Assembly (NCBI RefSeq): GCF_014775655.1
Contig: NZ_CP061274.1
Span: 682,001-746,000, forward strand
Origin: Clavibacter zhangzhiyongii
Lineage (GTDB): Bacteria > Actinomycetota > Actinomycetes > Actinomycetales > Microbacteriaceae
DNA: 64,000 nucleotides
Direction: 5' to 3'
Shown piece by piece: positions 34,110-52,129 of this stretch. The first letter of the stretch is position 1, and the number at the start of each line of letters is the position of its first letter. The notes under the pieces were generated by a model, which saw only the letters and a list, made by a program, of their open reading frames with translations, ran no database searches and was not told where the DNA came from. The translations under genes were made by a program, and so were the position numbers.

Positions 34110-34121
34110 GTAATATGTCAC
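34110..34121. promoter_or_regulatory. Operator of the hydroxyproline regulon (copy 1), overlapping a -10 box
   Basis: GTAATATGTCAC is the exact reverse complement of GTGACATATTAC at 45304-45315, upstream of the hydroxyproline operon. TAATAT at 34111-34116 is a good -10 hexamer, with TTGCCA at 34086-34091 as possible -35 (19-bp spacing). Binding here would therefore block the GH127 promoter. The FCD-type GntR encoded at 44548-45261 is the likely ligand-responsive repressor. Confidence 0.65.
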
Positions 34122-34163
34122 CTACCACCGACCACCCGAGGTCGGCGAGGGAGCGGGGTGGCT

Positions 34164-36164
34164 GTGACACGAGCGGATGCGGACGCCGCGGACCGGACGG
34201 CACGACGTGCCGCGGTCCTCCCCGGCACCGGCTCCCGACGCCCGCTGGGCAGCGGCGCCGTCACCCTCGAACCCGGCCTCCTCGCCGCGTGGCAGGAGCG
34301 CAACCGCGCGCGCACCATCCCGCACGCCATCGCGTCCATGACCGCCGCCGGCAACCTCGACGACCTCCGCGCGGCGGTCGACGGCGCGGGCGAGCGCCCC
34401 ATGCCGCGGTACCCGTTCCTCGACACCGACGTCTACAAGACGCTCGAGGGGATCGCCTACGAGGTGGGCCGCGGCAGCGCGACCGCGGACATGCGCGCCT
34501 TCCTCGCCGAGGCCACCGACGTGCTCGAGCGGGTGCAGGCCGACGACGGCTACATCGGCTCCTTCGTGCAGCGGCCCGGATCCGACCGCGAGCCCTGGTC
34601 CGACCTCGCCTGGGGCCACGAGCTCTACAACCTCGGCCACCTGATCCAGGCCGCCGTCGCCGACTCCCGCCAGGGCGGCGACAGCCGGCTCCTCGCCGTC
34701 GCGCGCCGCTTCGCCGACGCCGCCGTCCGCGCGTTCGGCCCGGGCGGCCGCGAGGAGGTCTGCGGGCACCCCGAGGTGGAGATGGCGCTCGTGGAGCTCG
34801 CCCGCGAGACGGGGGAGCGCGCGTACCTCGACCTCGCCTCCGTGTTCGTCGACCGGCGCGGCCACGGCACGGTGGCGACGCGGATCTTCCCGGCCGAGTA
34901 CTTCCAGGACGCGCACCCCTTCCGCGACATGCCCTCCGTCACGGGCCACGCCGTCCGCATGGCGTACCTCGCCGCGGGCGCCACCGACGTCGCCGTGGAG
35001 ACGGGCGACGCGGATCTGCTCGCCGCCTCCGTCCGCCTCTTCGACGACGCGGTGCGCACGCGCCTCTACGTGACGGGCGGGCTCGGCAGCCGCCACTCCG
35101 ACGAGGCGATCGGCGACGCGTACGAGCTGCCCAGCGAGCGCTCCTACAGCGAGACGTGCGCGGCCATCGCCGTGATGCAGTGGGCCTGGCGCCTCTTCCT
35201 CGCGACCGGCGAGCCGCGCTTCCTCGACGTGCACGAGACCGTGCTGCTGAACGCCTACGCGGTGGGCCTCTCCGCCGACGGCACGGGCTTCTTCTACGAC
35301 AACCCGCTCCAGCGGCGGCCCGACCACCACGCGCAGTCGGGCGCCGAGACGGAGGGCGAGCTCCTGCGCCGCCCGTGGTTCACCTGCCCGTGCTGCCCGC
35401 CGAACATCGTGCGCTGGATGAGCGAGCTGCAGGACCACGTCGCCGTGCAGGACGGCGACGACCTCGTGATCGCGCACCCGACCGCCTGCCTCATCCGCAC
35501 CGTCGCGCTCGACGTGCGCGTGACGACCGCGTACCCGTGGGACGGATCCGTCCGCGTGGAGGTGCTGCGCGCATCCGGCGCGACCACCGGCCTCATCCTC
35601 CGCCGCCCCGGGTGGTGCCGGTCCGCGTCCGCCTCCGTGCTGGGCGCCGACGGCGCCAGCGCGGCGGTCGACGCGACGGCGGACGACCGGTGGATCCGCG
35701 TCACCCGCGCCTGGGCGCCCGGCGACGCGCTCGTGGTCGAGCTCGACATGCCCGTGCGCGCGCTCGGGTCCCACCCCCACCTCGACGCGACGCGCGGCGC
35801 CCTCGCGGTCGCCCGCGGCCCGGTCGTCTACGCGGTCGAGCAGCAGGACGTCGGCGCGCCCGTCGACGACCTGCTCCTCGATCCGCGCGACCTGGCGGCG
35901 GCGCACCCCGTGCCGCTGCCCGTCGACGCGCCGTGGGGTCCCGCGTCCGCCGCGACGGATCCCGCGTCCGGCGTCGCCCTCGCCCTCCGCCTCCGCCGCG
36001 CGGTGCCCGCGCCCGACGAGCTCTACCCCGAGGTCGTCCCCGGCACCGCCGCCCCCGCCCCGTCGGCCGACCCCGTCGACGCGGTCCTCGTCCCGTACGC
36101 CCTGTGGGGCAACCGGGACGCGGGGGCCATGCGCGTCTGGATCCGCGCGGCCGACCCCGGCTGA
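34164..36164 (+). CDS. GH127 beta-L-arabinofuranosidase (HypBA1-like), intracellular
   Basis: About 666 residues. All residues known from Bifidobacterium HypBA1 can be placed: Glu314 (DEAIGD, acid/base, HypBA1 Glu322), Glu330 and Cys332 (SETCA, Glu338/Cys340), Cys410 and Cys411 (CPCCPPN, Cys417 nucleophile and Cys418). The spacing between the two Glu is identical, 16 residues. Such enzymes remove beta-1,2-linked arabinofuranose from hydroxyproline-rich plant glycoproteins. There is no signal peptide, so it acts on imported glycopeptide or arabinosyl-hydroxyproline. AGGGAG precedes GTG 34158 and GTG 34164; the latter has better spacing. It opens the 34-52 kb locus. Confidence 0.88.
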   Translation: MTRADADAADRTARRAAVLPGTGSRRPLGSGAVTLEPGLLAAWQERNRARTIPHAIASMTAAGNLDDLRAAVDGAGERPMPRYPFLDTDVYKTLEGIAYEVGRGSATADMRAFLAEATDVLERVQADDGYIGSFVQRPGSDREPWSDLAWGHELYNLGHLIQAAVADSRQGGDSRLLAVARRFADAAVRAFGPGGREEVCGHPEVEMALVELARETGERAYLDLASVFVDRRGHGTVATRIFPAEYFQDAHPFRDMPSVTGHAVRMAYLAAGATDVAVETGDADLLAASVRLFDDAVRTRLYVTGGLGSRHSDEAIGDAYELPSERSYSETCAAIAVMQWAWRLFLATGEPRFLDVHETVLLNAYAVGLSADGTGFFYDNPLQRRPDHHAQSGAETEGELLRRPWFTCPCCPPNIVRWMSELQDHVAVQDGDDLVIAHPTACLIRTVALDVRVTTAYPWDGSVRVEVLRASGATTGLILRRPGWCRSASASVLGADGASAAVDATADDRWIRVTRAWAPGDALVVELDMPVRALGSHPHLDATRGALAVARGPVVYAVEQQDVGAPVDDLLLDPRDLAAAHPVPLPVDAPWGPASAATDPASGVALALRLRRAVPAPDELYPEVVPGTAAPAPSADPVDAVLVPYALWGNRDAGAMRVWIRAADPG

Positions 36165-36174
36165 CCTGCCTCCC

Positions 36175-36217
36175 GCGCGCGCCGCCCGGGCCCACCCGGC
36201 CCGGGCGGCACGCGCGC
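36175..36217 (+). terminator. Intercistronic hairpin between GH127 and the peptide importer
   Basis: GCCGCCCGGG (36181-36190) pairs exactly with CCCGGGCGGC (36200-36209), extended outward by GCGCGC arms with one bulged A. It may terminate most GH127 transcripts or stabilise the downstream mRNA. No separate operator copy is seen before the importer, so read-through is likely. Confidence 0.5.
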
Positions 36218-36303
36218 ACCCTCCTCCCTCCGATCCCCCTCATGAACCGTCCGTCACTCCCCACCCGGTGCGCCTCGGCCGCCCTCCACGAAACGAGAGT
36301 CCG

Positions 36304-37986
36304 ATGAACAGACGAATCCCCGCACTCGGGCTGGCCCTCGCGGCCAGCCTCGCCCTCACGTCCTGCGCCGGAGCGGGAGGGGGCGGCGCGAGCGGCGACG
36401 TCACCGGCCCGGCCGACACGGGCGGCACCATGCAGGTGCTGCAGAGCACCGACTTCTCGCACCTGGATCCGGAGATGGGCTACGACACCGGCGTCCAGAA
36501 CCTCTACCGGCTCATCTACCGCACCCTGACGACGTCGTCGGGGAAGGACGGCGCGACCATCGCCCCCGACCTCGCCACCGACACCGGCACGCCGAACGAG
36601 GACGCGACGGTCTGGACCTTCACGCTCAAGGACGGGCTGAAGTTCGAGGACGGCTCGCCCATCACGAGCCAGTCCGTCAAGTTCGGCGTCGAGCGCTCGT
36701 TCGCCCCCGCGCTCGCCATCGGCACGCCGTACACGCGCCTCTACCTCGCCGGCGGTGACACCTACAAGGGCCCGTACGAGTCGGGCGACCTCGCCTCCAT
36801 CGAGACGCCGGACGAGCGGACCATCGTCTTCCACCTCAACCGCTCCGTCCCGGAGTTCGCGAGCGTCGCCGCGCAGAGCACGTTCACGCCGTTCCCCGTG
36901 GACAAGGACAAGGTGACGGTCACGAGCATGGACCAGCAGCCCATCGCCTCCGGCCCGTACCGCGTCACGGCCCGCACCGCCGGATCCTCCCTCACCCTCG
37001 CGCGGAACCCCGAGTGGGACCCGGCGACCGACGAGGTGCGCACGGCGAAGCCCGACGGCTGGCAGTTCACCATCGGCCTCGACCAGGCCACCATCGACGA
37101 GCGCATGCTCGCCGGACAGGGCGACGACAAGGACGCGATCGCCGGCGCCATCACCGCCGCCTCGGTCTCCCGGATCCAGACGCCCGCGATCAAGGCGCGC
37201 ACCGTCTCCGGCGACTTCGGCTGCACCACCTACCTCGGCCTCAACACCACCAAGCCGCACCTCGACGACCTCCGCGTCCGCCAGGCGATCGCGTACGCGG
37301 TCGACAAGAAGTCCCTCGCCGACGTCGCCGGCGGCCCCATGCTCGCGTCGCCGGCCTCGACGATGCTCACCCCGACCATCCCGGGCCACAAGGACTTCGA
37401 CCTCTACGCGAGCACCGACAGCGCCGGCGACGTGGACAAGGCCAAGGCGCTGCTCGCCGAGGCCGGGCTCCCCGACGGCTTCACCATGACGCTCGACGTG
37501 CGCAACCTGCCGACGGCCCAGAAGCAGGCCGAGGCGCTGCAGCAGTCGCTCGCGAAGGCCGGCATCACGCTCGAGCTCAACATCATCGACACCGCCACGT
37601 ACTACGAGACCATCGGGACGCCCTCGCAGCAGCACGACGCGGCCGTCACCGGCTGGTGCCCGGACTGGCGCTCGGCCAGCACGGTCCTGCCGACGCTGTT
37701 CGACGGGCGTCAGATCAGCGAGAAGGGCAACAACGACATCGCCCAGCTGAACGACCCCGCGGTGAACGCGAAGATCGACGAGGTCTCCGCGATGACCGAC
37801 CTCGAGGCCGCCAAGACCGCGTGGGGCGAGCTCGACGAGCAGATCCAGGAGCTCGCGCCGACCGTCCCGCTGCTCTTCGGGCAGACCGTCATGGTGGTCG
37901 GGCAGGACGTGCGGAACGCGTACTCGAACCCGCTCTGGGCGGGCGGCATCGACTTCGCCACCATCGGCCTGCACACGGGGAAGTAG
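36304..37986 (+). CDS. Peptide ABC transporter substrate-binding lipoprotein (SBP family 5, DppA/OppA)
   Basis: 560 residues. The lipobox LTSC (Cys about 20) anchors it outside the cell. The SBP_bac_5 landmarks are present: IAPDLATDTGTPNEDATVWTF region, LRVRQAIAYAVDK near residue 325, and WCPDWRSAS late. It would capture di- or oligopeptides. The four following transport genes overlap one another and complete a Dpp/Opp importer. In this locus the ligand is probably a hydroxyproline-containing (glyco)peptide, which is inference from context. Confidence 0.9.
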   Translation: MNRRIPALGLALAASLALTSCAGAGGGGASGDVTGPADTGGTMQVLQSTDFSHLDPEMGYDTGVQNLYRLIYRTLTTSSGKDGATIAPDLATDTGTPNEDATVWTFTLKDGLKFEDGSPITSQSVKFGVERSFAPALAIGTPYTRLYLAGGDTYKGPYESGDLASIETPDERTIVFHLNRSVPEFASVAAQSTFTPFPVDKDKVTVTSMDQQPIASGPYRVTARTAGSSLTLARNPEWDPATDEVRTAKPDGWQFTIGLDQATIDERMLAGQGDDKDAIAGAITAASVSRIQTPAIKARTVSGDFGCTTYLGLNTTKPHLDDLRVRQAIAYAVDKKSLADVAGGPMLASPASTMLTPTIPGHKDFDLYASTDSAGDVDKAKALLAEAGLPDGFTMTLDVRNLPTAQKQAEALQQSLAKAGITLELNIIDTATYYETIGTPSQQHDAAVTGWCPDWRSASTVLPTLFDGRQISEKGNNDIAQLNDPAVNAKIDEVSAMTDLEAAKTAWGELDEQIQELAPTVPLLFGQTVMVVGQDVRNAYSNPLWAGGIDFATIGLHTGK

Positions 37987-37989
37987 GCG

Positions 37990-38952
37990 GTGACCGCCGC
38001 ACTGCAGGGCGCCCAGGCGCCCGACTCGGCCCCCGCCTACCCGACGGGACGGCCGCCCGCCGTCACGCCGGCCAAGCGGGTGGTCACGGCCCTCCGGTCG
38101 ACGCCGTCCGTCATCGCCAGCGTCGCGTTCGTGGTGCTGGTCATGGTGCTCGCGATCTTCGCGCCGCTCCTGTCCGGGATCACCGGCTGGGGCCCGACGA
38201 CCTTCGACGCGACGGCCGTCGACCCCGTCCTCGGCGGCCTGCCCATCGGCCCGTTCGGCGGCGTCAGCGCCTCGCACTGGTTCGGCGTCGAGCCGCAGAA
38301 CGGGCGCGACGTCTTCGCCCGGATCGCGTACGGCGCCCGGGTGTCGATGCTCATCGCGGTCTCCGCGACGGTCGTCACCACCACGGTCGGCGTCGTGCTC
38401 GGCATGGTCGCGGGCTACTTCGGCGGCATCGTCGACCAGGTCGTGTCGCGGGTCATGGACTTCCTCATGGCCTTCCCGGCGCTCATCTTCATGATCGCGA
38501 TCCTGTCGGCGCTGCCCGCGGGCAACCGGCCGGCGCTGCTCGTCGTGGTGCTCAGCATCTTCGGCTGGCCGTACACGGCGCGCATCGTGCGCGGCCAGAC
38601 CATGACGATCCGCACGCGCGACTTCGTGGAGGCGGCCCGGGCGTCCGGCGCCTCGTCGATGCGCGTGATCTTCCGGGAGGTGCTGCCGAACCTGCGCGGC
38701 ACGATCATCGTGCTCGCCACGCTCGCGGTGCCCGGCTACATCGGCACGGAGGCGGGCCTGTCCTTCCTCGGGGTCGGCGTGCAGCCGCCGACGCCGTCGT
38801 GGGGCCAGATGATCGCCGACTCGGTGGCCTGGTACACGGTCGACCCCGCGTACTTCATCGTGCCGGGCTCGTTCCTCTTCCTCACGGTGCTGTCGTTCAC
38901 GGTCTTCGGCGACCACCTCCGCACCGCGCTCGAGCAGGGGGAGGCGGCATGA
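37990..38952 (+). CDS. Peptide ABC transporter permease, DppC/OppC type
   Basis: 320 residues from a GTG three bases after the binding-protein stop. A basic cytoplasmic N-terminus precedes six membrane helices. The EAA loop, contact site for the ATPases, reads EAARASGASSMRVIFREVLPN (about residues 215-235). The periplasmic DVFARIAYGARVSM segment is a DppC hallmark. The stop overlaps the next start by 4 bp. Confidence 0.9.
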   Translation: MTAALQGAQAPDSAPAYPTGRPPAVTPAKRVVTALRSTPSVIASVAFVVLVMVLAIFAPLLSGITGWGPTTFDATAVDPVLGGLPIGPFGGVSASHWFGVEPQNGRDVFARIAYGARVSMLIAVSATVVTTTVGVVLGMVAGYFGGIVDQVVSRVMDFLMAFPALIFMIAILSALPAGNRPALLVVVLSIFGWPYTARIVRGQTMTIRTRDFVEAARASGASSMRVIFREVLPNLRGTIIVLATLAVPGYIGTEAGLSFLGVGVQPPTPSWGQMIADSVAWYTVDPAYFIVPGSFLFLTVLSFTVFGDHLRTALEQGEAA

Positions 38953-39941
38953 TCGGCTACCTCGTGCGCCGTGCCGGATCCGCGCTGATCGTGCTCGCGC
39001 TCATCAGCCTGTTCACCTACATGATCTTCTTCCTGCTCCAGCCGGACCCCGCGGTCACCATCTGCGGCAAGACCTGCACGCCGGACAAGATCGACTCCAT
39101 CCGCCAGCTCCTCGGCCTCGACCGGCCGTTCTGGGCGCAGTACGGCGACTTCATCGCCGGCATCTTCACGGGCCGCTCCTACGGCGACGGCGCCACCGCG
39201 ATCCGGTGCGCGGCGCCCTGCCTCGGCTTCAGCTTCCAGACGCAGCAGTCGGTGCTCGACATGATCGTGTCCCGCCTTCCCGTGAGCATCACGCTCGCGG
39301 TCGGCGCGGCGATCCTCTGGGTGGTCCTCGGCGTCGCCGGGGGCCTGGTCAGCGCGATCAAGCAGGGCACCGTGTGGGACCGGGCGGCCATGGCCGCGGC
39401 GCTCACCGGGATCAGCGTGCCGGTGTACTTCGCGGCGCTGCTCCTCCAGTACGTGCTCGTGGTGCAGCTGCAGGTCCTGCCGTTCCCGCAGTCGGTGGCG
39501 TTCGGCGACGACCCCGTCGCCTGGCTGCAGTCGTACGTCATGCCGTGGCTCGTGCTCGCGCTCGGCTACGCGTCGGTCTACGCGCGCATCGTGCGGGCCA
39601 ACGTCATCGACACGCTGCAGGAGGACTACCTGCGGACCGCGCGCGCCAAGGGCCTGTCGTCGGCCCTCGTGATCCGCCGCCACGCCCTCCGGCCGTCGCT
39701 CACCCCCGTCGTCACGCTGTTCGGCATGGACTTCGCCGGGCTGCTCGGCGGGGCCGTGATCACCGAGACCGTCTTCGGCCTCAACGGCGTCGGCAAGCTC
39801 GCCGCCGACTCCATCGCCAAGAACGACCAGCCCGTCATCATGGGCGTCACGCTCCTCGCCGCGGCCTTCGTGGTCGTCGGGAACGTGGTCGTCGACGTGC
39901 TGTACACCGTGCTCGACCCCCGAGTGAGGATCACCGCGTGA
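38949..39941 (+). CDS. Peptide ABC transporter permease, DppB/OppB type
   Basis: 330 residues. It begins with a membrane helix (YLVRRAGSALIVL), typical of DppB, and has five further helices. The EAA loop is RTARAKGLSSALVIRRHALR (about 233-252). An insertion of about 40 residues after TM1 carries four Cys (ICGKTCTP and CAAPCLG) and lies outside the membrane, so one or two disulphides are possible. This loop also occurs in other actinobacterial DppB proteins. It is translationally coupled to its neighbours. Confidence 0.9.
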   Translation: MIGYLVRRAGSALIVLALISLFTYMIFFLLQPDPAVTICGKTCTPDKIDSIRQLLGLDRPFWAQYGDFIAGIFTGRSYGDGATAIRCAAPCLGFSFQTQQSVLDMIVSRLPVSITLAVGAAILWVVLGVAGGLVSAIKQGTVWDRAAMAAALTGISVPVYFAALLLQYVLVVQLQVLPFPQSVAFGDDPVAWLQSYVMPWLVLALGYASVYARIVRANVIDTLQEDYLRTARAKGLSSALVIRRHALRPSLTPVVTLFGMDFAGLLGGAVITETVFGLNGVGKLAADSIAKNDQPVIMGVTLLAAAFVVVGNVVVDVLYTVLDPRVRITA

Positions 39942-40804
39942 CCGCCGCCGCACCGCACCAGCCGCCCGCCCGGGCCGTCCCCGGGACCCCGCTCCTCGAG
40001 GTGGAGCACCTCACGATCGCGTTCCCCACCTCGCGGGGGCCGGTCGAGGTCGTGACCGACCTCTCCTTCCGCGTGGAGCCCGACAGCACCCTCGGCATCG
40101 TGGGGGAGTCGGGGTCGGGCAAGTCGATGACCTCGCTCGCCGTGATGGGCCTCGTGCCCCGCGGCGGCACGGTCACCGGCAGCATCCGGCTCGCGGGCGA
40201 GGAGCTCGTCGGCCGCTCCGACCGGGAGCTGCGCGCGATGCGTGGCGACCGGATGGCGATGGTCTTCCAGGATCCGCTCTCCTCGCTCAACCCGTACTAC
40301 ACGGTGGGGCTGCAGGTCGAGGAGGCGTACCGGGCGCACCGCACGGGCTCGCGCCGGGCCGTGCGGACCGTGGTGCAGGACGCGCTCGAGCGCGTCGGCA
40401 TCAAGGAGGCCGGCACGCGCATCGACCACTACCCGCACCAGTTCTCGGGCGGCATGCGGCAGCGCATCATGATCGCGATGGCCCTGTGCCTCGAGCCCGA
40501 GCTGCTCATCGCGGACGAGCCGACCACCGCGCTCGACGTGACGGTGCAGGCGCAGATCCTCGACCTGCTGCGATCCATCCGCGCCGAGACGGGGATGGGG
40601 ATGCTCGTCATCACTCACGACCTCGCCGTCGTGTCCTCCCTCGCCGACGAGGTGCTCGTCATGCAGGGCGGGTACCGGGTCGAGAGCGGCACCACCGAGC
40701 GCGTCTTCACCGCGCCCGAGGACCCCTACACGCACGCCCTGCTCGAGGCGATCCCGCGCATCGACGCCGCCTACGAGCACCTGACGACGGGATCCGCCTC
40801 ATGA
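39938..40804 (+). CDS. Peptide ABC transporter ATPase, DppD/OppD type
   Basis: 288 residues from GTG 39938 (GTGA overlap with dppB). Walker A is GESGSGKS (about 50-57), the signature FSGGMRQR, Walker B LLIADEPTTALD, and the switch His in ITHDLAVV. Its C-terminus (about 265-288) is short and has no visible Cys cluster of the DppD [4Fe-4S] type. It pairs with the DppF-type protein encoded next. Confidence 0.9.
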   Translation: MTAAAPHQPPARAVPGTPLLEVEHLTIAFPTSRGPVEVVTDLSFRVEPDSTLGIVGESGSGKSMTSLAVMGLVPRGGTVTGSIRLAGEELVGRSDRELRAMRGDRMAMVFQDPLSSLNPYYTVGLQVEEAYRAHRTGSRRAVRTVVQDALERVGIKEAGTRIDHYPHQFSGGMRQRIMIAMALCLEPELLIADEPTTALDVTVQAQILDLLRSIRAETGMGMLVITHDLAVVSSLADEVLVMQGGYRVESGTTERVFTAPEDPYTHALLEAIPRIDAAYEHLTTGSAS

Positions 40805-41748
40805 GCCCCCACGACGCCCGCCCCGACGGCCCGGCCGCGCCCGCCGCGACCGCGCCCGAGCCCTTCCTCTCCGCGCGCGACCTCGTCAAGGAGTACGCGA
40901 CCCGCAGCGGCCGCGGGCTCCGGCCGACCGTGCGGCGCTTCCGGGCGGTCGACGGCGTGAGCCTCGACGTGCCGACCGGGCAGACGCTCTCCATCGTGGG
41001 GGAGTCGGGATCCGGCAAATCGACGACCGCGCGCATCATCGCGCACCTGCTCGACCCCACCTCCGGCACGTTCGCGCTGCGGGGCGAGGACATGACGCAC
41101 GCGAAGGGGGCGGCCCTCCGCGAGTTCCGGCGCCAGGTGCAGGTGGTGTTCCAGGATCCCGCGTCGTCGCTGAACCCGCGGCACACGGTGGAGCAGATCA
41201 TCAGCGCGCCGCTGCGGTACCAGGGCATCACCACGCCGGGCGGCCACGGGCGGCTCGTGCGCGACCTGCTCGACCGCGTGGGGCTGAACCCGGACCACGC
41301 GCAGCGCTACCCGGCGCAGTTCTCGGGCGGGCAGTGCCAGCGCATCGGGATCGCGCGGGCGCTCGCCGTGGGGCCGGGCCTCATCGTGTGCGACGAGGCG
41401 GTCTCCGCGCTCGACGTGACGGTGCAGGCGCGAGTGATCGCGCTGCTGCGCGACCTCCAGCGCGAGCGCGGGCTCAGCTACGTCTTCATCGCGCACGACC
41501 TCGCCGTGGTGCGCCAGCTCTCCGACCGCGTGGCCGTGATGAGCTCCGGGGAGGTCGTGGAGGAGGGGACGCGCGACGACGTGTTCGAGCGGCCGCAGCA
41601 CCCGTACACGCGGTCGCTGCTCGACGCCGTGCCGCGGATCGACCCCGAGTGGGACCGGCGGCGCTCCGCCGCGCGCGCGGCCGCGGGGCTCGCGCCCGGA
41701 TCCCTCGGCACGGGCGCGGTCCGCACGTCGGACGGGTCAGCGGCATGA
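40801..41748 (+). CDS. Peptide ABC transporter ATPase, DppF/OppF type
   Basis: 315 residues. Walker A GESGSGKST (about 68-76) and Walker B LIVCDEAVSALD are intact. The signature reads FSGGQCQRIGIARAL. Walker B has DEAVSALD, the usual DppF/OppF variant. ATGA overlaps link it to dppD upstream and the prolyl aminopeptidase downstream, coupling import to intracellular hydrolysis. Confidence 0.9.
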   Translation: MSPHDARPDGPAAPAATAPEPFLSARDLVKEYATRSGRGLRPTVRRFRAVDGVSLDVPTGQTLSIVGESGSGKSTTARIIAHLLDPTSGTFALRGEDMTHAKGAALREFRRQVQVVFQDPASSLNPRHTVEQIISAPLRYQGITTPGGHGRLVRDLLDRVGLNPDHAQRYPAQFSGGQCQRIGIARALAVGPGLIVCDEAVSALDVTVQARVIALLRDLQRERGLSYVFIAHDLAVVRQLSDRVAVMSSGEVVEEGTRDDVFERPQHPYTRSLLDAVPRIDPEWDRRRSAARAAAGLAPGSLGTGAVRTSDGSAA

Positions 41749-43058
41749 TCGTGGGGACCGCGACCGCGACCGTGCCCGGCGTCCACGTCACCGACCACGA
41801 GATCCGCGTCCCGCTCGACTGGGCCGCGGCGCACGACGGCGAGCCGACCCCCACGATCACCGTCTTCGCCCGCGAGCTCGTCGCACCCGACCGCCGCGGC
41901 GACGACCTGCCCGCGCTCCTCTACCTCCAGGGCGGGCCGGGCGGGAGGTCGCCGCGCGTGATGGACGACGGCGGCTGGATCGGCCACGCCCTCCGCACCC
42001 ACCGCGTCGTGCTCCTCGACCAGCGCGGCACCGGGCGGAGCACGCCGATCACGGCGCGCACGATGGCGCGGTTCGGCGACGACCACCCGGCCGCCGCCCG
42101 GCACCTGGCGCTGTTCCGGGCCGACTCGATCGTGCGGGACGCCGAGGCGCTCCGGCACCACCTCGAGGGCGGCCGGCGCTGGTCGACCCTCGGCCAGAGC
42201 TACGGCGGGTTCCTCACGCTCACCTACCTGTCGCTCGCGCCCGAGGCGCTCTCGGCCTGCTACGTGACGGGCGGCCTCGCGTCCCTCGACCCCGACGCGG
42301 ACGAGGTCTACCGCCGCACCTACCCGCGGACGGCCGCGAAGAACGCCGGCCACCACGCGCGCTACCCGGGCGACGCGGCGATCCTGTCGCGCCTCGCCGA
42401 CCGGCTCGCCGCGGGCGACGTGCGGCTGCCCGACGGCGACGTCCTCACGGTCGAGCGGCTGCAGACCGTCGGCATCGACCTCGGCATGGGGCCCGGGCGG
42501 GAGCGGATCCACGCCATGCTCGACGAGGCGCTCGACGACCGCGGCGAGCCGACCGACGTGCTCCTCGCCGAGCTGCAGCGCCTCACCTCGTACGCGGCGA
42601 ACCCGCTGTTCGCGGTGATGCAGGAGAGCATCTACGCGTCCGGCACCCGGCCCGCCACCGCGTGGGCCGCCGAGCGGCTGCGCGCCGCGCACCCGGAGTT
42701 CGCGCCCGGCGCCCGGCCTCTGCTGCTCACGGGCGAGATGATGTACCCCTGGATGTTCGAGCAGATCCGGCTGCTGCGCCCGTTCCGCGGCGCGGTCGAG
42801 GAGACGGCGCGGCGCGACGACTGGCCGGAGCTGTACGACACCGCCCGCCTCGCCGCCAACGAGGTGCCGCTGGCGGCCGCGATCTACCACGACGACATGT
42901 TCGTGGACGCGGGCCTCCAGCAGGAGACGGCCGCGCGCGTCGGGAACGCCCGCGCGTGGATCACGAACGAGCACGAGCACGACGGCCTGGGGGCGCCCGG
43001 CGTCCTCGGCCGGCTGATGGACACGATCGCCCGCGATGGAGGAGGGATCCCCCGATGA
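41745..43058 (+). CDS. Prolyl aminopeptidase (S33 alpha/beta hydrolase, large PIP type)
   Basis: 437 residues. The oxyanion strand reads LYLQGGPGGRSP, the nucleophile elbow GQSYGGF (Ser about 150), and the catalytic His lies in EHDGLGAPG near the C-terminus. The size and the cap region (about 190-340) match the large proline iminopeptidases that release N-terminal Pro or hydroxyproline from peptides. It follows the peptide ATPase by an ATGA overlap, so freed Hyp would be produced where peptides enter. The exact specificity needs assay. Confidence 0.85.
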   Translation: MIVGTATATVPGVHVTDHEIRVPLDWAAAHDGEPTPTITVFARELVAPDRRGDDLPALLYLQGGPGGRSPRVMDDGGWIGHALRTHRVVLLDQRGTGRSTPITARTMARFGDDHPAAARHLALFRADSIVRDAEALRHHLEGGRRWSTLGQSYGGFLTLTYLSLAPEALSACYVTGGLASLDPDADEVYRRTYPRTAAKNAGHHARYPGDAAILSRLADRLAAGDVRLPDGDVLTVERLQTVGIDLGMGPGRERIHAMLDEALDDRGEPTDVLLAELQRLTSYAANPLFAVMQESIYASGTRPATAWAAERLRAAHPEFAPGARPLLLTGEMMYPWMFEQIRLLRPFRGAVEETARRDDWPELYDTARLAANEVPLAAAIYHDDMFVDAGLQQETAARVGNARAWITNEHEHDGLGAPGVLGRLMDTIARDGGGIPR

Positions 43059-44530
43059 CCGACACGACCCACGACGCGACGCCCGCGGCCCCGGCCCCGG
43101 CGGCGGAGGCCCCGGCTGCCGCCGCCGCCGCCCGACGCCCGCCCCGCCTCGCCCAGGTGCCCGCGTTCCGCGACCTCATGGCCACGGGCTGGATCACGCC
43201 CGACCGCACGCCGTCGACCGTGCCCGGCGCCGTCGAGGCGGCCGCCGCGCACCGCGACCGGCTGAGCGCCGCGATGCCCGGCGTCACGATGGCCGTCGTC
43301 AGCGGGTACGCGCCCACGCGCAACGACGACTGCCGCTACGCCTTCCGCGCCGACAGCGACTTCGTCTGGCTCACGGGCGTGCAGATCGAGGGGGCCGTGC
43401 TCGTGATGCACGCGGTGCCCGGCGGGCACGACGCCGTCCTGCACGTGCCCGCCCCCGCGCACCCGGGCGACCCGCGCTTCTTCTCCGACGCCGACCACGG
43501 CGAGCTCTGGGTGGGCCCGGCGCCCGCGCACGCCGACTGGCAGCGGGCGCTCGGGATCCCGGTGCGCGACCCCGACCGGATCGCCCGCGACCTCGCCGGC
43601 GTGCGCGACGTGCGTCGCGCCGGCGCCGTCACGGGCGTCCCGTCCGCGCTCGCCGACGTGCCGCGCGACCCGGCGCTCGTGGCGGCGCTCGGCGGGCTGC
43701 GCGTGATCAAGGACGCGTGGGAGGTCGAGGAGCTGCGCCGCGCGGTCGACGACACGGTCGAGGGCTTCGCCGAGGTCGTGCGGGCGATCCCGCGGGCACG
43801 GGCCCACGGCGGCGAGCGCTGGCTGCAGGGCACCTTCGACCGGCACGCCCGCACGGTCGGCAACGGGCCCGGCTACGCCACCATCGTGGGCGGGGGCGCG
43901 CACGCGACGATCCTGCACTGGGTGCGCTGCGACGGCCCGCTCCGGGACGGCGAGCTCGTGCTGCTCGACATGGGCGTGGAGGCCCGGAGCCTGTACACGG
44001 CCGACGTCACCCGCACGATCCCCGTCGACGGCGCCTTCACGCCCGAGCAGCGCCTCGTGCACGACATCGTCGAGCGCAGCCACCGCGCGGGCCTCGACGC
44101 CGTCGCGCCCGGCCGGCCGCTCGTCGACTTCCACCACGCGTCCATGGAGGTGGTGGCCCAGGGGCTGCACGACCTCGGGATCCTGCCGGTCTCGGTCGAC
44201 GAGGCCCTCTCGCCCGCCGGGCAGCACCACCGCCGCTGGCTCGTGTGCGGCATCGGCCACCACCTGGGCCTCGACGTGCACGACTGCTCGGGCGCCGGCA
44301 CCGCCGGGTACGACCGCGCGGTCGAGCCGGGCATGGTGCTGACGGTGGAGCCCGGCCTCTACTTCCCGCCGGACGACGCGACCGTGCCCCCCGAGCTGAG
44401 GGGCATCGGCGTGCGGATCGAAGACGATATCGTGGTGACGCAGACGGGGTCCGACGTGCTGTCGGACGCGCTGCCGATCGATGCCCGGGGCCTGGAGTCC
44501 TGGATGCGGGAACAGCGGTCCCCGTCCTGA
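43055..44530 (+). CDS. pepP: Aminopeptidase P / Xaa-Pro aminopeptidase (M24B)
   Basis: 491 residues. An Ala/Pro-rich leader of about 30 residues precedes an APP N-terminal domain (about 35-190) and the pita-bread catalytic domain. The five metal ligands are visible: Asp in LLDMGVE, Asp in TADVTRT, His in GIGHHLGLD, Glu in TVEPGLY and Glu in GVRIEDD. It cleaves the bond before Pro (X-Pro), and by inference X-Hyp, complementing the prolyl aminopeptidase encoded just upstream (ATGA overlap). Together they would fully dismantle Pro/Hyp-rich peptides. Confidence 0.9.
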   Translation: MTDTTHDATPAAPAPAAEAPAAAAAARRPPRLAQVPAFRDLMATGWITPDRTPSTVPGAVEAAAAHRDRLSAAMPGVTMAVVSGYAPTRNDDCRYAFRADSDFVWLTGVQIEGAVLVMHAVPGGHDAVLHVPAPAHPGDPRFFSDADHGELWVGPAPAHADWQRALGIPVRDPDRIARDLAGVRDVRRAGAVTGVPSALADVPRDPALVAALGGLRVIKDAWEVEELRRAVDDTVEGFAEVVRAIPRARAHGGERWLQGTFDRHARTVGNGPGYATIVGGGAHATILHWVRCDGPLRDGELVLLDMGVEARSLYTADVTRTIPVDGAFTPEQRLVHDIVERSHRAGLDAVAPGRPLVDFHHASMEVVAQGLHDLGILPVSVDEALSPAGQHHRRWLVCGIGHHLGLDVHDCSGAGTAGYDRAVEPGMVLTVEPGLYFPPDDATVPPELRGIGVRIEDDIVVTQTGSDVLSDALPIDARGLESWMREQRSPS

Positions 44531-44547
44531 CCCAGGAGGAGGACCGC

Positions 44548-45261: not shown

Positions 45262-45303
45262 TCCGACCTCTCCGGCGCCCGTGCTTCCCCTCCGCCACGA
45301 TGT

Positions 45304-45320
45304 GTGACATATTACTGTCA
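45304..45320. promoter_or_regulatory. Operator of the hydroxyproline regulon (copy 2)
   Basis: GTGACATATTAC at 45304-45315 is identical, as reverse complement, to 34110-34121. Here it also forms the inverted repeat TGACA-N6-TGTCA (45305-45320). TATTAC may be the -10 box of the operon starting at 45376. The site lies 40 bases after the GntR stop. Confidence 0.65.
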
Positions 45321-45375
45321 TCACCGACCACCGCCGCCTGATCGAGGCGCTCCGACCCGTGAGACGAGGGACCGC

Positions 45376-46590
45376 ATGACGCGTCACGTGGTGGTCGTCG
45401 GGGGCGGCATCGTCGGCGCCGCGTGCGCCCGCTCGCTGGCCCGGGCCGGGATCCGCGTCACCGTCGTCGAGCGGGCCGCCGTCGCGTCCGGCACGAGCGC
45501 GCAGGGCGAGGGCAACATCCTCGTCAGCGACAAGGGGCCGGGCGCCGAGCTGGAGCTCGCGCAGCTGGCCGCCCGCCGCTGGCCCGAGGTCGCCGCCGAG
45601 CTCGCGGACGAGCTGGGCGACGCGCTCCCGTCCATCGAGTACGAGCCCAAGGGCGGGCTCGTCGTCACGACCACCGACGAGGGCGCGGATCCGCTCCTCT
45701 CCTTCGCCGCCGGGCAGCGCGCCGCCGGGGTCGACGCGATCCCGGTCGACGTGCGCCGCGCGCTCGAGCTGGAGCCCTGGCTGAACCCCGGGATCACCGC
45801 CGCCGTGCACTACCCCGAGGACGCGCAGGTGCAGCCCGCCATCGCGACCGAGGCGCTCGCGGCGTCCGCCCGGCGCGCGGGGGCGGACGTCCGCACCGGC
45901 GTCGAGGTCATCGGCCCGCTCCTCGACGCGGACGGCGCGCTCCGCGGCGTGCGGACGAGCGCGGGCGACATCCCCGCCGACGACGTGCTCGTCGCCGCCG
46001 GTCCCTGGTCCGGCGAGGTGGCGCGCACCCTCGGGGTGGAGCTGCCGGTGCTGCCGCGGCGCGGGGTCGTGCTCGTCACCACGCGCATGCCGCACCGGAT
46101 CCTGCACAAGGTCTACGACGGCGACTACGTGGGTGCGGTCGGATCCGGCGACGGCGCCCTGCAGACCTCGGGCGTCGTGGAGTCGACGCCGTCGGGGACC
46201 GTGCTCATCGGATCCAGCCGCGAGCGCGTGGGCTTCGACGCCTCGCTGCGCGTGGCCGTGCTCGAGGAGCTCGCCGCGAAGGCCGTGCGGCTGTTCCCCT
46301 TCCTCGCCGAGGCGAGCGCCATGCGCTCCTACGGCGGCTTCCGGCCGTACCTGCCCGACCACCTCCCGGTGATCGGCCCCGACCCGCGGCTGCCCGGCCT
46401 CTGGCACGCGAGCGGGCACGAGGGCGCCGGGATCGGGCTCTCCGTCGCGACCGCCGACCTCGTCGCCGCGCAGATGGGCGGGGCCGCGACCGCGCTCGAC
46501 GTGCGGCCGTTCTCGGTCGCCCGGGCGTCGCTCGGGCTCCTCCTGCCGGGTGCCGCGGAGCCCGCCGACGCAGGACGGGTGCGGGCGTGA
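45376..46590 (+). CDS. FAD-dependent D-hydroxyproline dehydrogenase, catalytic (beta-like) subunit
   Basis: 404 residues of the DAO/glycine-oxidase fold. The FAD motif GGGIVGAACARSLARAG lies at residues 8-24. The Hyp/sarcosine-oxidase-type region GTSAQGEGNILVSDKGP follows (about 41-57), and the C-terminus has RSYGGFRPYLPD and GHEGAGIGLS. The set of three genes (this one, a small 2Fe-2S protein and an FAD/NAD protein) matches heteromeric D-Hyp or D-Pro dehydrogenases such as LhpB/E/F and HcnABC. It would oxidise cis-4-hydroxy-D-proline to 1-pyrroline-4-hydroxy-2-carboxylate. Confidence 0.85.
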   Translation: MTRHVVVVGGGIVGAACARSLARAGIRVTVVERAAVASGTSAQGEGNILVSDKGPGAELELAQLAARRWPEVAAELADELGDALPSIEYEPKGGLVVTTTDEGADPLLSFAAGQRAAGVDAIPVDVRRALELEPWLNPGITAAVHYPEDAQVQPAIATEALAASARRAGADVRTGVEVIGPLLDADGALRGVRTSAGDIPADDVLVAAGPWSGEVARTLGVELPVLPRRGVVLVTTRMPHRILHKVYDGDYVGAVGSGDGALQTSGVVESTPSGTVLIGSSRERVGFDASLRVAVLEELAAKAVRLFPFLAEASAMRSYGGFRPYLPDHLPVIGPDPRLPGLWHASGHEGAGIGLSVATADLVAAQMGGAATALDVRPFSVARASLGLLLPGAAEPADAGRVRA

Positions 46591-46961
46591 CGCCGCGGCG
46601 CGTGGATGCGGCCCGCGACCCGATCCGCCCGGAGCCCGCGGAGGCCGTGCGCTTCACCGTGGACGGGGATCCCGTCGCGGGCGTCCGCGGCCAGACCATC
46701 GCCGGCGCGCTGCTCGCCTCCGGCACGCTCGCCTGGCGGACGACCGCGAGCGCCGGGCGCCCGCGCGGCGTCTTCTGCGGCATCGGCGTGTGCTTCGACT
46801 GCACCGTCACCGTCAACGGGCTGCCCGACGTGCGCGCCTGCCAGCGCCGCGCGGTCGAGGGCGACGTGGTGGAGACGGGGCCGGGGGCCACGGTGCCGGA
46901 CGCCGCTGCCGCCGCCGACGCCGACCGCGCGCAGCCCGGCCACGACGGGAGCGCCTCGTGA
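46587..46961 (+). CDS. (2Fe-2S)-binding small subunit of D-hydroxyproline dehydrogenase
   Basis: 124 residues from a GTG overlapping the previous stop. The plant-type ferredoxin-like domain has Cys in GVFCGIGVCFDCTVTVNG and VRACQR (four Cys for one cluster). This is the HcnA-like module that shuttles electrons between the FAD subunits. The Ala/Asp-rich last 25 residues are not part of the fold. It is co-translated with both neighbours. Confidence 0.87.
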   Translation: MTPRRVDAARDPIRPEPAEAVRFTVDGDPVAGVRGQTIAGALLASGTLAWRTTASAGRPRGVFCGIGVCFDCTVTVNGLPDVRACQRRAVEGDVVETGPGATVPDAAAAADADRAQPGHDGSAS

Positions 46962-49509: not shown

Positions 49510-49516
49510 TCGACGG

Positions 49517-50518: not shown

Positions 50519-50547
50519 GCCGGCCGCCGCCACCGAAGAGGAGAGAC

Positions 50548-52044
50548 ATGACCCCGCAGGACACCGCCCCGACCGACCCGGCCGTCGCCGCCCGGGTGGA
50601 CGCCGTCGCCTCGCGCGCCGCCGCGGCCGCCGCGCCGCTCGCCGCCCTCGCCCCGGCCGCGCGCGCCGACGCGCTCGAGGCGGTGGCCGACGCCCTGGAG
50701 GCGATCCGGCCCGAGCTGCTGCCCGTCGCCGAGCGGGAGACCGCGCTCGCCCCCGGCCGCCTCGCCGGCGAGCTGACGCGCACGACCGTGCAGCTGCGGA
50801 TCCTCGCGGCGGCCGTGCGCGACGGCGGGCACCTCGACGTGCGCATCGACCTGGCGGATCCCGGCGCCGCCCCCGCGCCGCGGCCGGACATCCGGCGCCA
50901 CCTGGTGCCCGTCGGGCCCGTGCTCAACTTCGCGGCGTCGAACTTCCCGTTCGCGTTCTCGGTCGCGGGCGGCGACACGGCGTCGGCCCTCGCGGTCGGC
51001 TGCCCGGTGGTCGTGAAGGCGCACCCGGGCCACCCCGAGCTGTCGCGCCGCGTGGCGGAGGCCGCGTCCGCCGCGCTCGTCGCCGCGGGCCTGCCCGAGG
51101 GGACGCTCCAGCTCGTCGAGGGCGAGGAGGCCGGGCTCGCGATGCTGCGCGACCCGCGGATCCGCGCCGCCACCTTCACGGGCTCCCTGCGCGCCGGCCG
51201 GTTCCTCGCCGACGTCGCCGCGGCCCGCCCCGACCCGATCCCGTTCTTCGGCGAGCTCGGCAGCGTGAACCCCGTCGTCATCACGGAGCGCGCGGCCGCC
51301 GAGCGGGGCGAGGCCATCGCGCGAGCCCTCGTGGCGAGCGCCGCCGGATCCGCCGGGCAGCTCTGCACCGCGCCCGGGATCGTGCTGCTCCCCGCCGGCC
51401 ACGGCCTCGACGCTGTGCTCGCGGAGGAGGCCGGCGCCGTCGCCCCGCACGGGATGCTCAACGCCAAGATCGCGGAGGGCTACGCCGACGGACGCGCCGC
51501 CGCGATCGCGGTCGACGGCGTGCGCCTCGTCGCGGAGGGCCGCGCGGCCGCCGGCTCCGACGGATCCGTCACCCCCACGATCGCCGCCGTGCCCCTCGCG
51601 GCGTTCGAGGCCGCGGGCGACGCCCTCCGCCACGAGGTCTTCGGCCCGTTCGCGCTGCTCGTCGAGTACCCCGCGGGCACCGACCTCGCCGCGCTCGCCG
51701 CCCGCACCCTCACCGGCGAGCTGACCGCGAGCGTCCACCTCGGCGACGGCGAGGCCGACGGGGCGATCGCGGAGCTCGTCCGCGTGCTCGCCGCGCGCGC
51801 CGGCCGCGTGCTCGTCGACGCCTGGCCCACCGGCGTCTCCGTCACCGACGCCCAGCAGCACGGCGGGCCCTGGCCCGCCACCACGCTCGACCGCGGCACG
51901 AGCGTCGGCACCGCGTCGCTCGACCGGCTGCTGCGGGGCGTCGCGTTCCAGGGCGTGCCCGAGGCCCTGCTGCCCGAGCCGCTCCGCACCGCCAACCCGT
52001 GGGGCGTGCCGCAGCGGATCAGCGCGCGCGGCGCCCGGGCATAG
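50548..52044 (+). CDS. 2-oxoglutarate semialdehyde dehydrogenase (ALDH family)
   Basis: 498 residues of the KGSADH-type aldehyde dehydrogenase group. The Glu is in FFGELGSVNPV and the nucleophilic Cys in AGQLCTAPG (about residue 275). The N-terminal Ala-rich stretch (VASRAAAAAAPLAALAP) is typical of this subgroup. It oxidises the semialdehyde made by the DHDPS-family enzyme to 2-oxoglutarate. GAAGAGGAG precedes the ATG. It is the last gene of the hydroxyproline operon. Confidence 0.9.
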   Translation: MTPQDTAPTDPAVAARVDAVASRAAAAAAPLAALAPAARADALEAVADALEAIRPELLPVAERETALAPGRLAGELTRTTVQLRILAAAVRDGGHLDVRIDLADPGAAPAPRPDIRRHLVPVGPVLNFAASNFPFAFSVAGGDTASALAVGCPVVVKAHPGHPELSRRVAEAASAALVAAGLPEGTLQLVEGEEAGLAMLRDPRIRAATFTGSLRAGRFLADVAAARPDPIPFFGELGSVNPVVITERAAAERGEAIARALVASAAGSAGQLCTAPGIVLLPAGHGLDAVLAEEAGAVAPHGMLNAKIAEGYADGRAAAIAVDGVRLVAEGRAAAGSDGSVTPTIAAVPLAAFEAAGDALRHEVFGPFALLVEYPAGTDLAALAARTLTGELTASVHLGDGEADGAIAELVRVLAARAGRVLVDAWPTGVSVTDAQQHGGPWPATTLDRGTSVGTASLDRLLRGVAFQGVPEALLPEPLRTANPWGVPQRISARGARA

Positions 52045-52098
52045 GGCGCGCGCGGTCCGTCCGGCGGTCGCCGACGGCCCGCGCGACGATCCGCGACG

Positions 52099-52129
52099 CC
52101 CGCGGCTGAGGGTTCCCACAAGCCGCGGG
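52099..52129 (+). terminator. Terminator of the hydroxyproline operon
   Basis: CCCGCGGCT (52099-52107) pairs exactly with AGCCGCGGG (52121-52129), with a 13-base loop, 55 bases after the stop. Confidence 0.6.

What the first reader, a model, noticed from the sequence alone, without database searches (positions are those of the whole stretch)
34110..52129. An 18-kb hydroxyproline-glycopeptide (extensin) utilisation locus
Seen: on one strand, GH127, a five-gene peptide importer, two Pro-specific peptidases, a GntR regulator, and all genes to turn trans-4-hydroxyproline into 2-oxoglutarate, mostly with 4-bp overlaps. Known: GH127 enzymes such as HypBA1 remove beta-L-arabinofuranose from hydroxyproline-rich plant glycoproteins, and the Hyp pathway is well defined. 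Inference: the genes form one system in which glycopeptides from extensins are imported, de-arabinosylated, cut and burned. Joining the arabinosidase, peptide uptake and Hyp catabolism under one regulator is, to my knowledge, not described, and it would be a nutritional or virulence trait in a plant-associated actinobacterium.
Basis: partly seen in the sequence, partly recalled or inferred. Interest (0 to 1): 0.88.

Follow-up and report, generated by a model that had tools for sequence, protein, structure and literature searches.

The report
Hydroxyproline-glycopeptide utilisation regulon
A plant-associated bacterium of the genus Clavibacter carries one co-regulated set of genes that seems built to import sugar-decorated hydroxyproline peptides from plant cell-wall proteins, strip off the arabinose, cut the peptides and burn the hydroxyproline; the parts are known, but this combination under one switch appears undescribed.

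Summary
Fifteen co-directional genes at 34158-52044 encode a probably cytoplasmic GH127, an Opp/Dpp-type importer, a DM3-like hydrolase (putative prolyl aminopeptidase), aminopeptidase P, a GntR/FCD regulator and the hydroxyproline (Hyp) pathway to 2-oxoglutarate. GH127 keeps all HypBA1 active-site residues tested; the epimerase has the Cys-Cys pair plus the Ser and His typical of HypE. The decisive new evidence is an operator: GTAATATGTCAC occurs twice in the 3.1-Mb genome (<=1 mismatch), before GH127 and before the Hyp-dehydrogenase genes. Relatives in other families carry AGTRCAATGYCAC at the same two units; its core is the experimentally determined site of HypR, the Hyp-responsive GntR repressor of Streptomyces coelicolor. 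The window's regulator keeps HypR's zinc-site residues. All 11 of 11 named loci with this GH127 and HypE have sites at both units. In 299 family genomes this GH127 subgroup is beside the importer in 24/24 and within 25 kb of HypE in 22/24; other listed GH127s of HypE-bearing genomes in 2/35. One regulon for Hyp-arabinoside glycopeptides is thus well supported, a new variant of known HypR/Hyp systems. Extensin as substrate is inferred. A virulence role is untested; analogous Xanthomonas mutants stayed pathogenic.

The parts
34110..34121 (+). HypR-type operator GTAATATGTCAC; its first base is 48 bp before the GH127 start
   Evidence: exact; one of two sites (<=1 mismatch) in the 3.1-Mb genome; 0 of 100 shuffles of the window had 2 or more
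34158..36164 (+). GH127 beta-L-arabinofuranosidase-like enzyme, 668 aa, no signal peptide seen
   Evidence: PF07944 275.5 bits, PF20736, PF20737; HypBA1 residues H142, Y145, H194, R273, E322, E338, C340, C417, C418 all conserved, and H270, Y386
36304..37986 (+). Opp/Dpp-type solute-binding lipoprotein, 560 aa
   Evidence: PF00496 246 bits; best solved relative 2wok, oligopeptide-binding protein 2
37990..38952 (+). importer permease (OppC type)
38949..39941 (+). importer permease (OppB type)
39938..40804 (+). importer ATPase (OppD type)
40801..41748 (+). importer ATPase (OppF type)
41745..43058 (+). DM3-like alpha/beta hydrolase, putative prolyl (Hyp) aminopeptidase, 437 aa
   Evidence: 8jgn, 332.7 bits; model pLDDT 82.3, 8jgn TM 0.89 and 41% identity; conserved GQSxGG with S152
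43055..44530 (+). aminopeptidase P (M24B), expected to cut Xaa-Pro bonds
   Evidence: PF00557 + PF05195
44548..45261 (+). HypR-type GntR/FCD regulator, 237 aa
   Evidence: residues R92, E96, D138, F141, H142, E185, H186, H208 as in HypR
45304..45321 (-). second operator, dyad GTGACATATTACTGTCAT (+ strand reading)
45376..46590 (+). D-Hyp dehydrogenase, DAO subunit (LhpB/SCO6289 type)
   Evidence: PF01266 221 bits
46587..46961 (+). D-Hyp dehydrogenase, 2Fe-2S subunit (LhpF/SCO6290 type)
   Evidence: PF13510
46958..48595 (+). D-Hyp dehydrogenase, FAD/BFD subunit (LhpE/SCO6291 type)
   Evidence: PF07992 + PF04324
48592..49509 (+). DHDPS-family pyrroline-4-hydroxy-2-carboxylate deaminase (LhpC/SCO6292 type)
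   Evidence: PF00701
49517..50518 (+). 4-hydroxyproline 2-epimerase (Cys91/Cys254, Ser63, His225)
   Evidence: with residue rules from PMC4364671
50548..52044 (+). aldehyde dehydrogenase, putative alpha-ketoglutaric semialdehyde dehydrogenase
   Evidence: NCBIfam family-level matches only; Pfam not run on it

Best explanation
The locus is a HypR-controlled system that feeds on hydroxyproline-arabinoside glycopeptides of plant origin by importing first and digesting inside. Proposed steps: (1) short arabinosylated Hyp peptides, released from Hyp-rich plant glycoproteins by other proteases, bind the lipoprotein and enter through the Opp/Dpp-type importer (inferred); (2) the cytoplasmic GH127 removes beta-L-arabinofuranose from Hyp, the arabinose going to the araA-bearing operon elsewhere in the genome (active-site residues shown, location and substrate inferred); (3) aminopeptidase P cuts Xaa-Hyp bonds and the DM3-like hydrolase removes N-terminal Pro/Hyp, a pair that would suffice for Ser-Hyp-Hyp-type sequences (inferred); (4) free Hyp is epimerised, oxidised by the three-subunit D-Hyp dehydrogenase, deaminated and oxidised to 2-oxoglutarate (pathway known in relatives); (5) the HypR-type repressor binds operators before GH127 and before the dehydrogenase genes and is relieved when Hyp or a product of it accumulates, so that uptake, sugar removal, proteolysis and catabolism are induced together (operators shown, response inferred from S. 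coelicolor HypR).
For: Domains and residues. Linkage in 299 Microbacteriaceae genomes: this GH127 subgroup (>=53% identity) in 24 genomes of 8 genera; importer binding protein beside it in 24 of 24; HypE in the genome in 24 of 24 (68 of 299 overall), within 25 kb in 22 of 24; g7 within 10 kb in 23 of 24. Control: 126 other listed GH127 places, 35 of them in HypE-bearing genomes, 2 of 35 linked. Named loci: of the 80 nearest g7 loci kept, 26 have this GH127 and all 26 have the importer; 11 have this GH127 and HypE, in Clavibacter, Okibacterium, Leifsonia, Agromyces, Planctomonas and, with a different Hyp-gene order, Nonomuraea. Operator: 2 sites in the own genome, both here; 67 sites in 1.63 Mb of the 80 loci, 59 of them -60 to +400 bp before the extrapolated start of a cluster gene, versus 2 in one mononucleotide shuffle and 1 for the reversed patterns; both units carry a site (<=1 mismatch) in 11 of 11 GH127+HypE loci; proximal GH127 site in 19 of 24 family loci. 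In eight genomes of 8-12 Mb (six Kribbella, two Nonomuraea) 8 of 9 exact AGTGCAATGYCAC sites are the GH127 one, reversed control 0. Where the two units lie 1.17 Mb apart (G079) both still carry sites. The motif, found without that knowledge, has the core of the footprinted HypR site TACAATGTCAC / TGCAATGTCAC (PMC6608401). L-arabinose isomerase and an FGGY sugar kinase lie together in the genome.
Against: No biochemical or expression data. GH127 also contains an aceric acid hydrolase (BT1003), and sequence scores do not separate the substrates. g7 scores far below the prolyl-aminopeptidase cut-offs. HypE scores 350.7 bits against a cut-off of 376 for PRK13971, and its site-5 residue is Ile, neither the Cys/Tyr of HypE nor the Phe of ProR. 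Five of 24 family GH127 loci lack a proximal operator: L011 and L022-L025. In Kribbella the GH127 unit carries the operator but the separate Hyp genes did not in 4 of 4 loci examined. 24 of the 80 g7 loci had none of the other features scored, and 28 had neither a GH127 nor HypE within reach (some are cut by contig ends). Three Streptomyces loci have g7 and Hyp genes without GH127 or this importer. No GH43 was found in the own genome, so the alpha-1,3 cap of Ara4-Hyp would need one of the three GH51 matches. No extracellular protease was looked for. The importer could carry Hyp-arabinosides or plain peptides.
Confidence: 0.78

Rival explanations
1. A HypR regulon for plain Hyp/Pro peptides (for example collagen-like or unglycosylated peptides), with GH127 serving an unrelated sugar and only a neighbour.
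For: S. coelicolor HypR controls a collagenase and Hyp genes, no GH127 among its annotated targets (PMC6608401). Paeniglutamicibacter L061 and Streptomyces hainanensis L104 have importer, g7 and Hyp genes without GH127, and three other Streptomyces loci g7 and Hyp genes alone; 7 HypE places in the family have g7 within 25 kb but no GH127 of this subgroup.
Against: GH127 is first in the importer unit, carries the operator, and is beside the importer in 24 of 24 family genomes and with it in 26 of 26 named loci. Even Kribbella, without Hyp genes nearby, keeps the HypR-type site (<=1 mismatch) before GH127 in 11 of 11 loci. In Rhizobium pRL10 a different GH127 with a sugar importer sits beside g7- and Xaa-Pro-peptidase genes.
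Confidence: 0.1
2. The system takes up free Hyp-O-arabinosides (Ara-Hyp to Ara3-Hyp) rather than glycopeptides; the peptidases serve other peptides.
For: [quoted passage not shown] substrate range of the SBP family is broad (recalled).
Against: Importer is of the peptide class and two peptidases, of complementary Pro specificity if rightly named, are inside the same unit with 4-bp overlaps; g7 linkage is nearly as strong as the importer's (23 and 24 of 24).
Confidence: 0.08
3. Two independent units (GH127-importer-peptidases for glycans or peptides, and Hyp catabolism) that lie side by side by chance.
For: They are separated in G003, G079, Kribbella and some Nonomuraea; two promoters are likely.
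Against: 22 of 24 linked against 2 of 35 for other listed GH127s; same operator at both units, also when 1.17 Mb apart; conserved in families with different gene order.
Confidence: 0.04

Closest known systems
HypR regulon of Streptomyces coelicolor (SCO6289-SCO6294, PMC6608401; abstract, outline, sections 20 and 25 and passages read)
   Same: GntR/FCD repressor with a zinc site, operator core RCAATGTCAC, same five-gene Hyp set in the same order DAO-Fer2-PyrR-DapA-HypE, induced by L-Hyp
   Different: There the other annotated targets are a secreted M9 collagenase, a 2-oxoglutarate enzyme and an MdlB-type transporter; no GH127, peptide importer or Pro-peptidase is in its Table 2, and the semialdehyde dehydrogenase lies elsewhere
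Bifidobacterium longum HypAA-HypBA2-HypBA1 system (PMC7263609 passages)
   Same: Cytoplasmic GH127 with the same active-site residues, serving Hyp-linked beta-L-arabinosides, next to an ABC importer
   Different: Bifidobacterium cuts outside (GH43, GH121) and imports the disaccharide with a sugar-type importer; here an Opp-type importer, no GH43 in the genome, and peptidases and Hyp catabolism joined on
Xanthomonas euvesicatoria XeHypAA-XeHypBA2-XeHypBA1 (PMC6085000 passages)
   Same: Plant pathogen with arabinosidases for Hyp-linked arabinose, a broken prolyl oligopeptidase gene alongside
   Different: Enzymes with signal peptides; XeHypBA1 is called GH146 in PMC10850190 (passages); the xehypBA2-AA operon is under HrpX; no importer or Hyp catabolism in the passages read; deletions did not reduce pathogenicity
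Hyp pathway of Pseudomonas aeruginosa (Lhp) and Sinorhizobium meliloti (Hyp), as cited in PMC6608401
   Same: Epimerase, D-Hyp dehydrogenase (three-subunit type in Pseudomonas), deaminase, semialdehyde dehydrogenase
   Different: Regulator of Pseudomonas is of the AraC family and the S. meliloti dehydrogenase is unrelated; no arabinosidase mentioned in what was read
Rhizobium johnstonii 3841 pRL10 cluster (RL_RS28715-28755)
   Same: g7-like hydrolase, Xaa-Pro peptidase, GntR, DapA-family gene and a GH127 side by side
   Different: GH127 of another subgroup with a sugar-type importer; no proline racemase or Hyp epimerase annotated in the 45 kb shown

Membership tests
GH127 beta-L-arabinofuranosidase | GH127 catalytic, middle and C-terminal domains | tested here: met
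   PF07944, PF20736, PF20737 all above cut-off
GH127 beta-L-arabinofuranosidase | Zn/nucleophile residues E338, C340, C417, C418, carboxylate E322, and subsite residues H142, Y145, H194, R273 of HypBA1 | tested here: met
   residue roles from passages of PMC10728902 and PMC10850190
GH127 beta-L-arabinofuranosidase | Activity on Hyp-linked arabinose | not testable with these tools
   needs an assay; BT1003 shows other substrates exist in the family
HypR (GntR/FCD) regulator | GntR + FCD domains with the zinc-site and neighbouring residues R92, E96, D138, F141, H142, E185, H186, H208 | tested here: met
   L209 of HypR is Ile here
HypR (GntR/FCD) regulator | Operator RCAATGTCAC before target genes | tested here: inconclusive
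   Window carries GTAATATGTCAC (same ATGTCAC arm, different middle); relatives in other families carry the HypR form, up to one mismatch, at the same units. Binding not shown.
4-hydroxyproline 2-epimerase | Pro_racemase family with Cys-Cys pair | tested here: met
   C91, C254
4-hydroxyproline 2-epimerase | HypE-type ligand residues (site 1 Ser/Val, site 4 His, site 5 Cys/Tyr) | tested here: inconclusive
   S63 and H225 met, I244 at site 5 fits neither HypE nor ProR (positions transferred by eye from the alignment)
4-hydroxyproline 2-epimerase | NCBIfam PRK13971 curated cut-off | tested here: not met
   350.7 bits against 376, so assigned by residues and neighbours, not by the model
Opp/Dpp peptide ABC importer | SBP_bac_5 protein, two permeases and OppD- and OppF-type ATPases in one operon | tested here: met
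   (class only: no curated NCBIfam equivalog cut-off reached in the rows shown)
Opp/Dpp peptide ABC importer | Peptide as ligand | not testable with these tools
   family includes other ligands
Aminopeptidase P (M24B) | AMP_N and Peptidase_M24 domains | tested here: met
   NCBIfam PRK10879 228.1 bits is below its cut-off of 465
S33 prolyl aminopeptidase | NCBIfam prolyl aminopeptidase cut-offs | tested here: not met
   37.1 bits against 259.75. Fold and sequence fit DM3 of Arabidopsis, recalled from the literature to be a prolyl aminopeptidase; works-like claim only
B. longum-type extracellular HypBA2/HypAA system | GH43 HypAA enzyme | tested here: not met
   no PF04616 match in the own genome
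B. longum-type extracellular HypBA2/HypAA system | GH121 HypBA2 enzyme | not tested
   no search was made for GH121

The most novel reading that the evidence does not exclude
The natural substrates include secreted arabinosylated plant peptide signals (CLE-type or Hyp-rich systemin-type peptides, which carry Hyp-linked arabinose chains; recalled), so that plant-associated actinobacteria, some living in xylem, would import and consume host peptide hormones as well as wall-protein fragments, with HypR as the sensor of that food.
Probability: 0.08. Interest if true: 0.85.

Novelty: new variant of a known kind. Interest (0 to 1): 0.62.

Why it matters
It gives a complete, testable import-first route for the use of Hyp-rich plant glycoproteins, in contrast to the cut-outside route known from Bifidobacterium and Xanthomonas, and it enlarges the HypR regulon from free Hyp and collagen to plant glycopeptides. 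It predicts functions for a GH127 subgroup, an Opp-type importer and a DM3-like peptidase family across several actinobacterial families, and offers an operator with which further members of the regulon can be found. It also hints at a parallel assembly in Rhizobium, on plasmid pRL10.

Tried and rejected
Chance neighbours: rejected by the 22/24 against 2/35 linkage and by shared operators. Proline racemase or trans-3-Hyp dehydratase for g14: disfavoured by the Cys-Cys pair, Ser63 and His225 and by the D-Hyp dehydrogenase, deaminase and aldehyde dehydrogenase beside it. A link of the arabinose operon to the same operator: the best other genomic match of the longer pattern (811190, two mismatches) lies before a LacI-type gene of the araA locus and looks like that regulator's own site, so it was not counted. 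A simple dyad search upstream of GH127 missed the site because the own-genome site at GH127 is one-armed; the DAO site gave it away. Literature searches for a prior description of GH127 joined to Hyp catabolism or a peptide importer found none in the held open-access library. Limits: of most papers only the listing was seen; one search listed 30 of 32 papers and one search listed 15 of 32; some searches returned zero papers and so say little. One search found HypR. The Fisher values ignore shared ancestry and are not used as probabilities. For one search only the 54 best of the g7 places listed (51% identity or more) were entered. The structure prediction of g7 and Foldseek only confirmed the DM3-like fold. 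The extra exact site in G301 (C1:2799835) has no cluster gene within the 12 kb looked at and stays unexplained.

Full report
What is there. The window lies in a 3,098,336-base single-contig genome that I take to be of the genus Clavibacter (Microbacteriaceae): the closest named loci, 88-90% identical in the g7 protein, are Clavibacter. The species was not identified. Fifteen genes run on the + strand from 34158 to 52044: GH127 (34158-36164), a five-gene Opp/Dpp-type importer (36304-41748), a DM3-like alpha/beta hydrolase called g7 here (41745-43058), aminopeptidase P (43055-44530), a GntR/FCD regulator (44548-45261), three subunits of a D-amino-acid dehydrogenase of the LhpB-LhpF-LhpE type (45376-48595), a DHDPS-family deaminase (48592-49509), a Pro_racemase-family epimerase (49517-50518) and an aldehyde dehydrogenase (50548-52044). 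Eight of 14 junctions are 4-bp overlaps. The names rest on Pfam domains, residues and context: no protein of the 15 reached a curated NCBIfam cut-off in the rows shown.

Residue-level checks. Eleven HypBA1 positions were compared and all are conserved in the window GH127: H142, Y145, H194, R273, E322, E338, C340, C417 and C418, whose roles I saw in passages of PMC10728902 and PMC10850190, and H270 and Y386. No N-terminal hydrophobic stretch like that of the lipoprotein was seen, so the enzyme is probably cytoplasmic. The epimerase has the Cys-Cys pair (C91, C254), Ser63 at site 1 and His225 at site 4, as PMC4364671 gives for HypE, but Ile244 at site 5, where HypE has Cys/Tyr and ProR has Phe. 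It scores below the curated cut-off of the HypE model (350.7 against 376). g7 is far below the prolyl-aminopeptidase cut-offs; its nearest solved relative by sequence and by fold is DANGEROUS MIX 3 of Arabidopsis (8jgn; 332.7 bits, TM 0.89, 41% identity), which I recall to be a prolyl aminopeptidase.

Linkage in the family. In 299 genomes of the family (drawn evenly from a larger group), the GH127 subgroup at 53% identity or more occurs in 24 genomes of 8 genera; the next GH127s fall to 47% or less. The binding protein at 56% or more occurs in the same 24 genomes and lies beside GH127 in all 24. HypE is present in 24 of 24, against 68 of 299 overall, and lies within 25 kb in 22 of 24 (exceptions G003, G079); g7 lies within 10 kb in 23 of 24 (exception G053). 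Of the 126 other GH127 places printed (the list was cut), 35 lie in HypE-bearing genomes and 2 of 35 are within 25 kb of HypE.

Linkage in named genomes. Of the 80 loci nearest to g7 in genome contigs (196 relatives were found, 80 kept), 26 hold this GH127 subgroup, all 26 with the importer; 17 hold HypE; 11 hold both; 20, all Rhizobiales, hold another GH127; 52 hold a GH127 or HypE; 24 hold none of the features scored. Some loci are cut by contig ends. The full set occurs in Clavibacter, Okibacterium, Leifsonia, Agromyces, Planctomonas and three Nonomuraea (Streptosporangiaceae), the last with the Hyp genes in another order. Kribbella has the GH127-importer-g7 unit without Hyp genes nearby in 11 of 17 loci; HypE is elsewhere in 9 of 9 genomes searched of the kind GH127 without HypE nearby (six Kribbella, two Nonomuraea, one Glaciibacter). 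In Rhizobium johnstonii pRL10, a g7-like gene, a Xaa-Pro peptidase, a GntR gene, a DapA-family gene and a GH127 with a sugar-type importer are neighbours.

The operator. A dyad, GTGACATATTACTGTCAT, lies before the dehydrogenase genes, and its arm GTAATATGTCAC recurs with its first base 48 bp before GH127. With up to one mismatch this 12-mer has two sites in the whole genome, both in this locus; the reversed control has none, and 0 of 100 window shuffles had two. In relatives outside the family the same places carry AGTRCAATGYCAC. Both forms together, with up to one mismatch, give 67 sites in the 1.63 Mb of the 80 loci: 59 lie -60 to +400 bp before the extrapolated start of a cluster gene, 6 more about 20 bp from a GH127 site, 2 elsewhere. 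Controls: 2 in one mononucleotide shuffle, 1 for the reversed patterns, 0-7 for each permuted pattern. All 11 GH127+HypE loci have a site at both units. In the family set a proximal site precedes GH127 in 19 of 24 loci (in L026 it falls on the extrapolated start); L011 and L022-L025 lack one, L024 and L025 having a one-mismatch match about 350-380 bp away. In eight genomes of 8-12 Mb, 8 of 9 exact AGTGCAATGYCAC sites are the GH127 one. In G079, where the two units are 1.17 Mb apart, both carry sites; in G003 only the Hyp unit does. Separate Hyp units of two Nonomuraea carry a site (2 of 2), those of Kribbella do not (0 of 4), and the Glaciibacter one has only a two-mismatch match.

What the operator is. 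After finding the motif I met PMC6608401 (read: abstract, outline, sections 20 and 25, passages). HypR of Streptomyces coelicolor, a zinc-binding GntR/FCD repressor, protects TACAATGTCAC and binds TGCAATGTCAC; it represses the Hyp operon SCO6289-SCO6293, a collagenase gene and SCO5281, and the Hyp operon is induced by L-Hyp. The motif found here in Nonomuraea, Kribbella, Paeniglutamicibacter and Streptomyces hainanensis is that site, with one mismatch in some copies. The window's regulator keeps R92, E96, D138, F141, H142, E185, H186 and H208 at the same numbers as HypR. [quoted passage not shown] this holds here too.

Reading. The simplest account is one HypR-type regulon for Hyp-arabinoside glycopeptides: import, arabinose removal, exopeptidase digestion by two enzymes of complementary Pro specificity, and Hyp oxidation. 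Arabinose, rather than collagen, points to plants. The genome has L-arabinose isomerase beside a sugar kinase of the FGGY family, three GH51 matches and no GH43. Shown: genes, active-site residues, conserved linkage, shared operators. Inferred: every substrate, the order of steps, induction. Not supported: a virulence role.

Known or new. Each part is known. Literature searches (open-access library only, mostly listings) found no description of GH127, peptide importer and Hyp catabolism as one system. Bifidobacterium (PMC7263609), Xanthomonas (PMC6085000) and a Latescibacteria in silico study (PMC4454575), of each of which I read passages, describe arabinosidases for Hyp-rich glycoproteins without it in what I read; the proline-racemase neighbourhood study (PMC4113996, passages) mentions transport systems near the 4HypE clusters, and peptidases near a t3HypD cluster, while the stem 'glycos' does not occur in its text. 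I rate it a new variant of a known kind.

Noticed in passing
window 54548-55516: A clear prolyl aminopeptidase (TIGR01249, 377.7 bits, cut-off 259.75) lies 2.5 kb beyond the locus, after an acyl-CoA-oxidase-like gene at 52248-54431; neither of the two genomic operator sites is near it.
   Followed up: partly
L113:13494-24107 (R. johnstonii 3841 pRL10, record 268493-279106): g7-like hydrolase, Xaa-Pro peptidase, GntR, DapA-family gene and another GH127 with a sugar-type importer are neighbours; a GH127 of another subgroup lies near g7 in 20 Rhizobiales loci. Looks like an independent assembly of a related system.
   Followed up: partly
L124:7778-11641 (own genome 293778-297641, minus): Second GH127-domain protein, 1287 aa ORF with DUF6805 and DUF4986, next to a permease gene; no operator site there.
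   Followed up: partly
L011, L042, L022 upstream of GH127: A different dyad, TGTGAACGGTCACA or close to it, stands before GH127 in some family members, two of which (L011, L022) lack the HypR-type site; perhaps a change of regulator.
   Followed up: no
L156:5835 (G301 C1:2799835): An exact AGTGCAATGTCAC site in a Kribbella genome with no cluster gene within 12 kb; a possible further regulon member.
   Followed up: no
window 41745-43058: This bacterial protein is 41% identical to the Arabidopsis protein DANGEROUS MIX 3 in the structural alignment, a close plant-bacterium match.
   Followed up: no
window 56029-59016: 995-aa protein with a right-handed beta-helix region.
   Followed up: no
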